From a virus, in IMG/VR virus record IMGVR_UViG_3300046780_000088, positions 22,783-86,782 of that record: a stretch of 64,000 nucleotides of DNA. One strand, written 5' to 3'. Both the position numbers and the translations under genes were made by a program. Shown here in pieces: positions 6,928-18,474 of this stretch. Below the pieces are notes generated by a model. The model was not told where the DNA came from, did no database searches, and worked only from the letters and a program-made list of their open reading frames with translations. The number at the start of each line of letters is the position of its first letter. Within the stretch, counting starts at the first letter, position 1.

Positions 6928-7145
6928 TTTCCGAACTCATCTGTGAGTTTTGCAAGTTGAACAAATACGCGACCATCAATATCAATTCGATCACGCGCTA
7001 ATTTTAATACCTTTGCAGGAAATTTATAGTCGTTATTTGTGTTCAATAGCACAATCAAATCATCCATCATTACGAGTAATTTTGCGCGCGATCCTAATTC
7101 TTCATCGCTGCCCATCGACTGCGATCCAACTTGGGAAACTGGCAT
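6924..7145 (-). CDS. hypothetical early protein
   Basis: 73 residues from ATG 7145, which has AAGGTG seven bases upstream; an internal ATG at 7115 would reduce the overlap with the upstream gene from 52 to 22 bases and is the alternative. The body is an alpha/beta sequence (LLVMMDDLIVLLNTN). No family recognised. Confidence 0.5.
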   Translation of the reverse strand: MPVSQVGSQSMGSDEELGSRAKLLVMMDDLIVLLNTNNDYKFPAKVLKLARDRIDIDGRVFVQLAKLTDEFGK

Positions 7146-7591
7146 AGTATCACCTTATCTGTTTGTGAGTCATATGTATCGATCAATGCGTTTGTGTTCT
7201 GATCCAACTCACTTGCAAACAGAACAGCTTCTTTGGCAGTTGCGCCAAGATGCATTGCTGCCATCGCAAATTTCGATCCTGTTCCAATCGCTGCAAATTC
7301 ATGCTCTACCGGAACAGGAGTCGGGCCATCATCGTACCAATACACGTCTTTCCACTGATTGACGTGAAGTGCTTCGAATTTCTTCGTGCGCTTCCATTCG
7401 AAATCGGCAAGCTTCTCTCCCGCCATGAACCACTGTCTGAACAACCATTCTCCATCAGTGTCACCAGCACATGCCATGCAACCGTGCCCTTTGATCTGAT
7501 AGAGCTTGCGGCAGTATGTCTTGATGTCATCGCCGAGAGTCAACTGTGTATCAGCGGCAAGGATGCGACCGCGCCATGCAATCGTCGTCAT
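7094..7591 (-). CDS. proteasome-like (HslV-type) Ntn hydrolase
   Basis: 165 residues starting MTTIAWRGRILAADTQLT. Thr at position 2 or 3 followed by a beta strand and an AADTQ motif is the signature of proteasome beta/HslV-type N-terminal nucleophile hydrolases. A Lys near residue 29 and a downstream GDTDG resemble the family's conserved Lys and Gly-Asp elements. Phage members are known but their substrates are not established. No HslU-like ATPase is in the window, so it may act alone or hijack a host unfoldase. It sits between the phosphoesterase and small genes, coupled to both. Confidence 0.7.
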   Translation of the reverse strand: MTTIAWRGRILAADTQLTLGDDIKTYCRKLYQIKGHGCMACAGDTDGEWLFRQWFMAGEKLADFEWKRTKKFEALHVNQWKDVYWYDDGPTPVPVEHEFAAIGTGSKFAMAAMHLGATAKEAVLFASELDQNTNALIDTYDSQTDKVILCQFPKLDRSRWAAMKN

Positions 7592-11475: not shown

Positions 11476-11549
11476 TGGCGGGACGTAAGGGATTCGAACC
11501 CATATCTGACGGATAGACAATCCGTTGCATCCCGATCTGCCAACGCCCC
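11476..11549 (-). tRNA. tRNA-Asp(GTC)
   Basis: A 74-nt cloverleaf on the minus strand. The acceptor GGGGCGT pairs with ACGTCCC (one G-U), the anticodon stem is ACGGA/TCCGT with loop TTGTCTA (anticodon GTC, normal U33), and the T arm has loop TTCGAAT with one stem mismatch. The discriminator is G and CCA is encoded. It is the last RNA of the tRNA/tmRNA block. Confidence 0.88.
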
Positions 11550-11627: not shown

Positions 11628-11702
11628 TGGTAGCGGGTGTGCGATTCGAACGCACGATCTTCAGGTTATGGGCCTGACGAGTTACCACTTCTCCAACCCG
11701 CA
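11628..11702 (-). tRNA. initiator-like tRNA-Met(CAT)
   Basis: A 75-nt cloverleaf on the minus strand, CCA encoded. The anticodon loop is CCCATAA (CAT, but C33 instead of U33). Two initiator hallmarks are present: an unpaired 1:72 position (T against T) at the end of an otherwise 6-bp acceptor stem, and an A11:U24 pair in the D arm. The anticodon stem has only two of the three consecutive G:C pairs typical of initiators. An elongator Met tRNA is the alternative. Confidence 0.82.
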
Positions 11703-11902
11703 TTCGATTCCTTCGGCGGTTAAATCCCCGGATCGGGGGTCCGCCGTCGCCGACCCAAGACGCTTTAGCGACTCGCGCCGGGGAGTCCATGTGTTGCAAC
11801 ACATTCGCTCCTAAGCTTTCTTCCGGTTCCGCACAGCACAGGTTATGTGCTTTCGGTTCTGTTGCCACGCTCACCGGATCGCGCCGCGTATTGTTGGACC
11901 GA

Positions 11903-11941
11903 TTAGGCCGCGATACGCTGGTCGTACATTTCGTCATTCGC
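11903..11941 (-). other. tmRNA tag reading frame: ANDEMYDQRIAA-stop
   Basis: The resume codon GCG (11939-11941) starts a 12-codon frame reading ANDEMYDQRIAA and ending TAA. With the alanine carried by the tmRNA the tag would be A-ANDEMYDQRIAA. The start matches the SspB-contacting AANDE.Y of bacterial tags and the end keeps the double Ala used by ClpXP, while the YDQRI centre differs from the usual ALAA ending. Confidence 0.9.
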
Positions 11942-12099
11942 AGTTATGCGCTGGCTCAGTTATTACGCGACTGTGCGCGTGTTGTCATCGTCTGCTATCT
12001 CGCCACGTCGAAACCTGTGCGACCCCGCCGCGCGACACTTTGTTACCCGCATATTATTGCGCCCAACATTCACGGATGAACTATGGGAAAATGCCGCTC

Positions 12100-12201
12100 G
12101 GTGGAGTCGTCGGGAATTGAACCCGAGTCCGCAACGCCTTCACTTCCGAGTCTGCGGTCTTAATCACCGCCACAACAATTCTTCGAACGACAAGGGTTTC
12201 C
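12100..12201 (-). ncRNA. tmRNA acceptor piece (tRNA-like 3' half)
   Basis: This is the first-transcribed half of the permuted tmRNA. It contains a hairpin (GCGGT, seven-base loop, ACCGC; about 12155-12171), then the T arm and the 3' acceptor strand CGACTCC-A-CC. The stretch from GGACTCGGG to the acceptor aligns base for base in length with the E. coli tmRNA 3' end. Its 5' boundary is taken as the predicted transcription start near 12201. Confidence 0.88.
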
Positions 12202-13105: not shown

Positions 13106-13488
13106 GACGCTACCACCAATCCAAATTCCCTCATTGACGCTCGAACATTCACCCAACCATCGAAGCGTTCGAGCAATCGAGCGTACAGCGCACAGAAATT
13201 GCCATGATGACCCACCTGTCCCAATGCATGTGTGAGTTCATGTAACGTATACCAAGGCGACCGAAAACATTCTGGCAGATAGATTAAATGATACTTGTCA
13301 TTATAGAATCCGGCACCGCCAACTGTTCGAGTAGTTCTGACTTTCGGTGCTGATCCTTTCGCACGCATATTGCTCCACACGTTTCTCGCCAAATCATTAC
13401 ACTCTGTGAGCGAAAGATATGGACATTGCATTCCTACCAATACACACCCTTCCCATGCGTAGAGCTTTGCCCGTTGGAAATCTCTCAT
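13102..13488 (-). CDS. HExxH zinc-metallopeptidase-like protein
   Basis: 128 residues. The motif LHELTHALGQVGHHGNFCALY contains HELTH (two zinc ligands and the catalytic Glu) and a downstream His that could be the third ligand. The N-terminal part (MRDFQRAKLYAWE ... LSLTECNDLARNVW) matches small phage proteins that carry this motif. It may be a minimal protease or an inactive relative; the substrate is unknown. It lies between an RNA ligase and micro-genes and is coupled to the ligase by ATGA. Confidence 0.7.
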   Translation of the reverse strand: MRDFQRAKLYAWEGCVLVGMQCPYLSLTECNDLARNVWSNMRAKGSAPKVRTTRTVGGAGFYNDKYHLIYLPECFRSPWYTLHELTHALGQVGHHGNFCALYARLLERFDGWVNVRASMREFGLVVAS

Positions 13489-14087
13489 TCTACTTTCCCT
13501 TTCGGAACTTCATCGTTCTTTATCGTCTTCTTGAATCCGATGTTTGCCGCGTGATGCCATATCACGATGCCTTCAGGGTTCATGAATCCGGGCGCTGCTT
13601 TACTGCCATGTTGTTCGAGTTCAGCTAACGACATTCGAACCCAATCAGTTGTGAATGGACCTTGATACACGACCGGCACAACGTCGCAACATGCAGGACG
13701 TACATCCTGCCATCTGTGAGTATTGAACAGCGCGAAGCGCCTGTGATCGAGTCCGTATCCGCGTTGAATACCGCGCCCATACCACTCGCCAAAGTGTGAG
13801 CCATGTCCAAGGTCTGCCAATTCTGCCGCGTGATTAGCAACCCAAAGAGCAAACCCAAAGTTGTCGTCTTGCGTACCAATCCATCGCGTGCGCGATCCTG
13901 CACGAATGAAATGTGTGACGCCATCAATCAACACTTGATTGTCGTACTTGATGTCGTATGCCTCGTCACCTGACACTAGCAACCGTGAATCTCGAATGCT
14001 TACTTGCGCATTCGTGCCATCGATCTTTTCTGTGATCGTACAGTCACGCGACAGTCGCGGCATCTTGGGAAACTCAACGAATTCCAT
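13485..14087 (-). CDS. Rnl2-type RNA ligase
   Basis: 200 residues from ATG 14087 (AGGAGAAAGA upstream). Nucleotidyltransferase motifs appear in order: motif I TEKIDGTNA with the adenylated Lys (K-x-DGTN), motif III-like FGEWYGRGI, motif IV PEGIVIW and motif V FKKTIK. The compact length implies an adenylyltransferase core without a large C-terminal domain. Such enzymes seal nicks in RNA, classically repairing tRNAs cut by host anticodon nucleases. Together with the RtcB gene at 17290 it gives this phage two unrelated RNA ligases. Confidence 0.85.
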   Translation of the reverse strand: MEFVEFPKMPRLSRDCTITEKIDGTNAQVSIRDSRLLVSGDEAYDIKYDNQVLIDGVTHFIRAGSRTRWIGTQDDNFGFALWVANHAAELADLGHGSHFGEWYGRGIQRGYGLDHRRFALFNTHRWQDVRPACCDVVPVVYQGPFTTDWVRMSLAELEQHGSKAAPGFMNPEGIVIWHHAANIGFKKTIKNDEVPKGKVE

Positions 14088-14265
14088 TCTTTCTCCTATC
14101 ACGTTTTGTGAGTACAGCAAACATTTCGTTGCATACGTCAGTACCGTGTTCCTTTTCGAACTTCGCTATATCGCACCGAGCTTCAATACGATCCATTTGC
14201 CTCAATGACGACAGTTTGTTTGTGAGTCTGTCAAACCTATCAAGCATTGATCTGGTATAGCTCAT
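14074..14265 (-). CDS. hypothetical small helical protein
   Basis: 63 residues from ATG 14265, coupled to the upstream gene by ATGA. Basic and helical (MLDRFDRLTNKLSSLRQMD). Overlaps the RNA-ligase start by 14 bases. Function unknown. Confidence 0.55.
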   Translation of the reverse strand: MSYTRSMLDRFDRLTNKLSSLRQMDRIEARCDIAKFEKEHGTDVCNEMFAVLTKRDRRKNGIR

Positions 14266-17289: not shown

Positions 17290-18474
17290 TCAGTTTCCCT
17301 TTATGCAAAGCACTTGCTTCAATGTGTGAACGACTTCGACAAGGTCTTCCTGATTCTTCATTACGACATCGATGTCTTTGTAAGCACCGGGTATCTCATC
17401 GATCACGCCTTTATCTTTGCGACATTCGACGCCTTGTGTTTGTGCGATAAGATCGTCAACCGTGAATTGCTTGTTCGCTTCTGTGCGCGACATCCGACGA
17501 CCAGCACCATGCGAACACGAATGGTACGAGTCTGCATTTCCCTTCCCACGCACAATGTATGATCGTTGCCCCATGCTGCCGGGTATGATGCCCATATCGC
17601 CCTCTCGCGCACGAATCGCCCCTTTTCTAGTTACCAAAACGTTCTGTCCAAAATGACTTTCACGCTCGATGTAATTGTGATGGCAGTTGACCGCTTCGGT
17701 TGTGAGTTCAAACGGTTTCACCGAGTGATGCAACGCGCGCAGCACCGTATCGAGCATCGCCTTGCGGTTTGTGAGTGCATAGTCCTGTGCCCACGTTACC
17801 GCCTCGACATAGTCGCGGAAGTCTTGCGTGTTCTCCGGGAAGTATGCAAGGTCTTTGTCGGGCAACGTTATGAAGTATTCTTCCATGCGCTCGCGCGCTT
17901 TTGTGATGAAGTGACGCCCGATCTGATTGCCGATGCCACGCGATCCTGAGTGCAACATCACCCAAACGTTTTGTGACTCGTCAAGACAGACTTCAATGAA
18001 GTGATTCCCGCCACCCAACGTGCCGATTTGCTTACCAGCGTTCTTCAACGAAACCTTTGAATCGCGCAACGGCAAATCATCGAGTCTGTCGAACAGATTT
18101 CTATCCGGCCATTGATCTTCGCCGTGCGCCGCCCCCGGCCCGAGCGGAACACCGCGCTCGATGTCGTGTCGCAATTGTGTGAGTGAGTCGGGCAGATCAG
18201 ATGCAGTCAATGATGTGCGTACAGCGTTCATACCGCAACCGATGTCAACGCCAACAGCAGCAGGAATCACCGCGCGTGCAGTCACTATCACGCTACCGAC
18301 TGTTGCACCAATGCCGTAATGAACGTCAGGCATCGCCACAACTCCATGCGGATGAATGAACGGCAGTTGCGAAGCGTTGATCAGTTGCTTCATTGCTTCA
18401 GGTTCGACATCGTCTGTCCAAATGCGAACAGGACGTGCGCCGGGTGATTGTGTGACGTGCGGAAAATCAGACAT
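17290..18474 (-). CDS. rtcB: RtcB-type RNA-splicing ligase
   Basis: 394 residues, close to the bacterial length. RtcB joins RNA 2',3'-cyclic phosphate or 3'-phosphate ends to 5'-OH ends using GTP and Mn2+. Family landmarks appear in order: MPDVHYGIGATVG, GVDIGCGMN (metal-binding Cys), GGGNHFIEV (metal-binding His), LHSGSRGIGNQIG, CHHNY, GIIPGSMG, and CSHGAGR with the guanylated His. It should reseal tRNA or rRNA cut by ribotoxins. It complements the Rnl2-type ligase at 13485, which needs the opposite end chemistry. Confidence 0.95.
   Translation of the reverse strand: MSDFPHVTQSPGARPVRIWTDDVEPEAMKQLINASQLPFIHPHGVVAMPDVHYGIGATVGSVIVTARAVIPAAVGVDIGCGMNAVRTSLTASDLPDSLTQLRHDIERGVPLGPGAAHGEDQWPDRNLFDRLDDLPLRDSKVSLKNAGKQIGTLGGGNHFIEVCLDESQNVWVMLHSGSRGIGNQIGRHFITKARERMEEYFITLPDKDLAYFPENTQDFRDYVEAVTWAQDYALTNRKAMLDTVLRALHHSVKPFELTTEAVNCHHNYIERESHFGQNVLVTRKGAIRAREGDMGIIPGSMGQRSYIVRGKGNADSYHSCSHGAGRRMSRTEANKQFTVDDLIAQTQGVECRKDKGVIDEIPGAYKDIDVVMKNQEDLVEVVHTLKQVLCIKGN

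What the first reader, a model, noticed from the sequence alone, without database searches (positions are those of the whole stretch)
11800..12201. Phage-encoded circularly permuted, two-piece tmRNA
Seen: the tRNA-like 3' half (T arm, CGACTCC, A73) is transcribed before the 5' half (GGGGTCG, GGTTTCGACG, tag frame). The split acceptor strands pair over 7 bp with the G3-U70 alanine determinant. Known: two-piece tmRNAs occur in alpha-, some beta-proteobacteria and cyanobacteria. Inferred: the phage carries its own ribosome-rescue RNA, processed by host RNases at the 73-nt spacer. I am not aware of a well-studied phage example of this form.
Basis: partly seen in the sequence, partly recalled or inferred. 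Interest (0 to 1): 0.9.

Follow-up and report, generated by a model that had tools for sequence, protein, structure and literature searches.

The report
Phage two-piece ribosome-rescue RNA (tmRNA)
This uncultured phage carries its own intact-looking gene for a two-piece ribosome-rescue RNA; the gene is real, but phages with this form of the RNA have been reported before and are common in environmental virus data, so it is a new example of a known kind.

Summary
On the minus strand, ARAGORN calls a permuted tmRNA at 11812-12191 with tag ANDEMYDQRIAA, and Rfam tmRNA_permuted (RF04321) matches over its full length at 11903-12155 with 90 bits, cut-off 47. The tRNA-like 3' half precedes the 5' half. 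The split acceptor stem pairs over 7 bp with G3-U70, and the spacer is 73 nt, as stated. ARAGORN finds no tmRNA in 3.2 Mb of shuffled window. The surroundings are phage: terminase, portal, coat and tape-measure genes, with no SmpB and no tyrosine integrase or resolvase. Best reading: a divergent, beta-like two-piece tmRNA that uses host RNases and host SmpB to rescue stalled ribosomes during infection. The kind is not new: phage Melnitz carries one, and 53 unique two-piece tmRNAs were counted in phage genomes in 2021 (PMC9004378). Our scan found at least 119 IMG/VR stretches with the permuted arrangement. Individual traits: a tag ending RIAA, an extra hairpin in the acceptor piece, CCG instead of encoded CCA, and neighbouring RNA-ligase, RtcB and initiator-tRNA genes. 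Expression, processing and activity are inferred.

The parts
12100..12191 (-). 3' acceptor piece of the tmRNA (transcribed first): AGAATTGTTGT block, hairpin insert, P2 5' strand, T arm, acceptor 3' strand CGACTCC, A73, CC (then G, so CCA is not encoded). The 5' end is approximate.
   Evidence: ARAGORN; RF04321; alignment
12154..12170 (-). GCGGTGATTAAGACCGC, a 5-bp hairpin inserted in the acceptor piece and absent from the six aligned viral relatives
   Evidence: alignment; coordinates; folds as a hairpin
12108..12131 (-). T arm (stem TCGGG/CCCGA, loop TTCAATT) with flanking bases
12027..12099 (-). 73-nt intervening spacer, expected to be cut out; folds into a hairpin (z -2.27)
12020..12026 (-). 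5' end of the coding piece, GGGGTCG, pairing with CGACTCC (7 bp, G3-U70)
11957..11980 (-). Candidate pseudoknot PK1: stem ACGCG/CGCGT, loop CAGT pairing with downstream ACTG
11903..11941 (-). Tag reading frame GCG AAT GAC GAA ATG TAC GAC CAG CGT ATC GCG GCC TAA = ANDEMYDQRIAA*
11812..11902 (-). 3' remainder of the coding piece as delimited by ARAGORN; contains an AGCACA/TGTGCT hairpin; end uncertain
11628..11702 (-). tRNA-Met (CAT), initiator-like, next to the tmRNA on the same strand
11476..11549 (-). tRNA-Asp (GTC), same strand

Best explanation
This is an ssrA gene of the circularly permuted form, carried by an apparently virulent tailed phage and most like the betaproteobacterial type. The minus-strand transcript carries the acceptor piece, a spacer and then the coding piece. 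Host RNase P is expected to cut before G1 at 12026. Host 3'-end maturation (RNase Z or exonucleases) and CCA addition would finish the acceptor piece after C75 at 12100. The two pieces would stay together through the 7-bp acceptor stem and P2. Alanyl-tRNA synthetase would charge it through G3-U70 and, with host SmpB, it would enter stalled ribosomes. The ribosome would resume at GCG (11941), add ANDEMYDQRIAA and terminate at TAA, freeing the ribosome and marking the fragment for proteolysis. The probable benefit is keeping ribosomes usable while mRNAs are being broken during infection. Shown: gene anatomy, model match, phage context, absence of SmpB in the record. Inferred: expression, processing, charging, activity, benefit.
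For: ARAGORN permuted call with tag; RF04321 at 90 bits, full model; beta_tmRNA 66 bits and alpha 41 bits at the same place; 7/7 acceptor pairs with G3-U70 and an intact T stem. Across 95 distinct viral matches, pairs not fixed by the search pattern covary: 5-68 GC/AT/CG/TA, 6-67 TA/CG/AT, 50-64 GC/CG/TA/AT, and this gene is the only U5-A68. PK1 can form. Phage replication and virion genes lie on both sides. Viral relatives share the AGAATTGTTGT block and the GGTTTCGAC region (the latter required by the search pattern) and are scored beta_tmRNA.
Against: It falls below the beta_tmRNA and alpha_tmRNA cut-offs, so it is divergent. Its folding energy and two-piece interaction energy do not beat shuffles (44 of 300 shuffles as good). 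No promoter-like site lies directly upstream. CCA is not encoded. No expression data exist. No close phage relative with the same tmRNA was found, so purifying selection on the tag could not be measured.
Confidence: 0.88

Rival explanations
1. It is a decoy or inhibitor: the RNA binds host SmpB or ribosomes and blocks host trans-translation instead of carrying it out, as proposed for the tag-less tmRNA of mycobacteriophage DS6A.
For: DS6A carries little more than the tRNA-like domain, and a similar RNA inhibits tmRNA in E. coli (PMC11915505, PMC4131195). The phage here encodes no SmpB of its own.
Against: This gene has a complete resume site and a 12-codon tag beginning AND and ending in a hydrophobic residue plus AA, which a decoy would not need.
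Confidence: 0.06
2. It is a degenerate or recently captured host gene with no function in the phage, for example a relic of integration at ssrA.
For: ssrA is a frequent integration site, and imprecise excision has been proposed as the source of phage ssrA (PMC9004378). The gene scores lower than its viral relatives.
Against: Acceptor stem, T arm, resume site and open tag are all intact. No tyrosine integrase or resolvase is found in the 86.8-kb record. It sits beside tRNA genes within phage genes on the same strand.
Confidence: 0.05
3. Chance resemblance, or a misread tRNA pair.
For: Single-strand folding energy is ordinary.
Against: E 5.5e-16 in a 64-kb scan, and none called in 3.2 Mb of shuffled sequence.
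Confidence: 0.01

Closest known systems
Two-piece tmRNA of OM43 phage Melnitz and related phages (PMC9004378)
   Same: Phage-borne, permuted ssrA gene
   Different: Melnitz's is alpha-type, linked to a glutamine riboswitch, in a 141-kb myophage. This one is closest to the beta model, with no riboswitch match, in a phage with a P22-type coat protein and 86.8 kb recovered.
Betaproteobacterial two-piece tmRNA (Rfam RF01850 beta_tmRNA)
   Same: Gene order, possible P2 outer pairing GTTGT/ACAAC, acceptor CTCCACC not followed by A, AND... tag
   Different: 66 bits, below the cut-off of 84; 17-nt hairpin insert; tag ends RIAA; a poor match at the model's 3' hairpin
Permuted tmRNAs in IMG/VR viral contigs (e.g. 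L007, L030, L079, L105)
   Same: Same arrangement and motifs; 12 of 16 long contigs tested encode a terminase
   Different: The four named score 128-161 bits with beta_tmRNA, lack the hairpin insert and carry different tags
One-piece phage tmRNAs (mycobacteriophages Bxz1, Wildcat and others; Bacillus phage G; PMC4131195)
   Same: Phage-borne ssrA; [quoted passage not shown]
   Different: Standard, not permuted, gene form (from general knowledge of these phages)

Membership tests
Permuted (two-piece) tmRNA, RF04321 | Match to the family covariance model above its curated cut-off | tested here: met
   90 bits against 47, full model
Permuted (two-piece) tmRNA, RF04321 | tRNA-like 3' half encoded before the 5' half, with an intervening spacer | tested here: met
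   Ends at 12100 and 12026, spacer 73 nt
Permuted (two-piece) tmRNA, RF04321 | Alanine-type acceptor stem with G3-U70 | tested here: met
   GGGGTCG/CGACTCC
Permuted (two-piece) tmRNA, RF04321 | Resume site and tag frame ending in a stop | tested here: met
   cataactGCGAATGACGA; ANDEMYDQRIAA*
Permuted (two-piece) tmRNA, RF04321 | Transcript processed into two RNAs | not testable with these tools
   Needs RNA-seq, Northern blot or end mapping
beta_tmRNA, RF01850 | Match above the curated cut-off | tested here: not met
   66 bits against 84, full model 1-331; therefore called beta-like, not a formal member
alpha_tmRNA, RF01849 | Match above the curated cut-off | tested here: not met
   41 bits against 50
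cyano_tmRNA, RF01851 | Match above the curated cut-off | tested here: not met
   Not reported at gathering threshold; any weaker clan match was hidden behind beta_tmRNA

The most novel reading that the evidence does not exclude
The phage tmRNA is not a copy of the host's but a specialised version (a tag ending RIAA, an added hairpin in the acceptor piece) that works with the phage-encoded RNA ligase, RtcB, initiator tRNA and HslV-family peptidase as one programme against host RNA-cleaving defences, possibly sending tagged chains to a different protease.
Probability: 0.07. Interest if true: 0.65.

Novelty: new member of a known kind. Interest (0 to 1): 0.27.

Why it matters
It adds a divergent, beta-like two-piece tmRNA from a phage with a P22-type coat protein to a group known mainly from marine and aquatic phages, and shows that the form is common in environmental viral contigs. 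None of the 16 long viral contigs tested encodes SmpB, which implies dependence on host SmpB. Why phages keep their own rescue RNA is an open question that a laboratory phage with such a gene could test.

Tried and rejected
Folding energy as evidence: not informative, except that the spacer folds somewhat better than shuffles (z -2.27). Host assignment by pattern scans of bacterial genomes for this acceptor/T-arm sequence: two scans, no match, so the host is unknown. DNA similarity to sequenced phages across the locus: only the tRNA-Met matched among the records listed. Relatives found through portal and coat proteins: 16 loci at 32-69% identity, mostly on short contigs, none with a permuted tmRNA, so conservation within this phage group could not be judged. 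The first viral pattern used too short a spacer range for this gene; one search corrected that. Acceptor pairs 1-72 to 4-69 and G7 were forced by the search pattern and were not counted as covariation.

Full report
Observation. On the minus strand of the window, ARAGORN reports a permuted tmRNA at 11812-12191 with tag ANDEMYDQRIAA. cmscan against Rfam finds tmRNA_permuted (RF04321) at 11903-12155, 90 bits, cut-off 47, E 5.5e-16, model covered from end to end. In a narrower search beta_tmRNA matches 11862-12192 at 66 bits, below its cut-off of 84; alpha_tmRNA gives 41 bits, below 50. Reading 5'->3', the T arm and the acceptor strand CGACTCC, A73 and CC end at 12100. A 73-nt spacer follows, and GGGGTCG starts at 12026. 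All seven acceptor pairs form, with G3-U70. Fifty shuffled versions of the window (3.2 Mb) gave no tmRNA call.

Structure. The T stem (TCGGG/CCCGA) and acceptor stem are intact. A candidate PK1 can form: stem ACGCG/CGCGT, loop CAGT with downstream ACTG. The resume sequence is cataactGCGAATGACGA. Across 95 distinct permuted tmRNAs taken from viral contigs, pairs that the search pattern did not fix vary on both sides while remaining paired: 5-68 (GC, AT, CG, TA), 6-67 (TA, CG, AT) and 50-64 (GC, CG, TA, AT). This gene is the only one with U5-A68. Thermodynamic folding of the precursor is not better than shuffles, so energy is not evidence here. The spacer alone folds better than most shuffles (z -2.27), which might hold the two pieces near each other before cutting (inference).

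Individual traits. Compared with six viral relatives, the acceptor piece shares the block AGAATTGTTGT, which holds GTTGT, an outer P2 strand that can pair with ACAAC within 11976-11987. It then carries an extra hairpin, GCGGTGATTAAGACCGC (12154-12170), that none of the six has. The base after ACC is G, so CCA must be added after transcription. Most of the viral set encode A there (108 of 125 matches), while the beta_tmRNA consensus itself has C. The tag ends RIAA, and ARAGORN reports the tag as not identified in its own list. Tags ending in R-(I/L)-A-A recur in other viral contigs (L009, L049, L051, L100), so this ending is not unique.

Context. The contig is a virus record of 86,782 bases. 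It encodes terminase, portal, a P22-type coat protein and a tape measure, plus primase/helicase and exonuclease. A DnaE-like polymerase and a ribonucleotide reductase are recognisable by eye among the translations of the 22.8 kb outside the window (not tested against a family library). No SmpB, tyrosine integrase or resolvase was found. The tmRNA lies just upstream of an initiator-like tRNA-Met and a tRNA-Asp on the same strand. An RNA-ligase gene lies at 13485-14120 and RtcB at 17290-18474. A further five tRNA genes are in the part outside the window.

Mechanism. From established two-piece tmRNA biology (Caulobacter; reviewed in PMC3985003), the precursor should be cut by host RNase P and 3'-processing enzymes, charged with alanine through G3-U70, and used with host SmpB to rescue ribosomes stalled on broken mRNA. 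Host SmpB use is an inference. It is consistent with the absence of SmpB from this record and from 16 long viral contigs that carry the permuted pattern, 12 of which encode a recognisable terminase. [quoted passage not shown] A decoy role like that suggested for the tag-less DS6A RNA is unlikely because the tag is complete.

Comparison with the known. Phage-borne two-piece tmRNA is already described: Melnitz and related phages, and 53 unique two-piece tmRNAs among 18,146 phage genomes, 50 of them from marine or aquatic samples (PMC9004378). The tmRNA database lists 79 unique bacteriophage tmRNA sequences of all forms (PMC11915505). Some of the short contigs may be bacterial, but the long ones with terminases are phage. 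The finding is thus a real, divergent, beta-like member of a known kind.

Limits. The host is unknown. No close relative carrying the gene was found. There are no expression data.

Noticed in passing
11628-11702 (-): Initiator-like tRNA-Met: positions 1 and 72 are U and U (unpaired, as expected of an initiator), the anticodon stem is TCAGG/CCTGA, and CCA is encoded. It is 89% identical to a tRNA-Met of 'Virus Rctr197k' from a DAMO enrichment.
   Followed up: partly
13485-14120 (-) and 17290-18474 (-): RNA ligase (PF09414) and RtcB (PF01139) genes near the tmRNA and tRNAs: a possible RNA-repair set.
   Followed up: partly
7094-7591 (-): HslV-family / proteasome-type peptidase gene (phrog_1040, PF00227).
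   Followed up: no
12027-12099 (-): The spacer folds into a long hairpin more stable than most shuffles (z -2.27).
   Followed up: no
L125:4368-5008 (+): Second tRNA cluster (Ala, Gly, Thr, Leu with anticodon AAG, Ile) outside the window.
   Followed up: no
IMG/VR contigs L006-L124: At least 119 viral stretches hold the permuted tmRNA pattern, with diverse tags. 16 long contigs (77-192 kb) lack SmpB and 12 of them have a terminase.
   Followed up: partly
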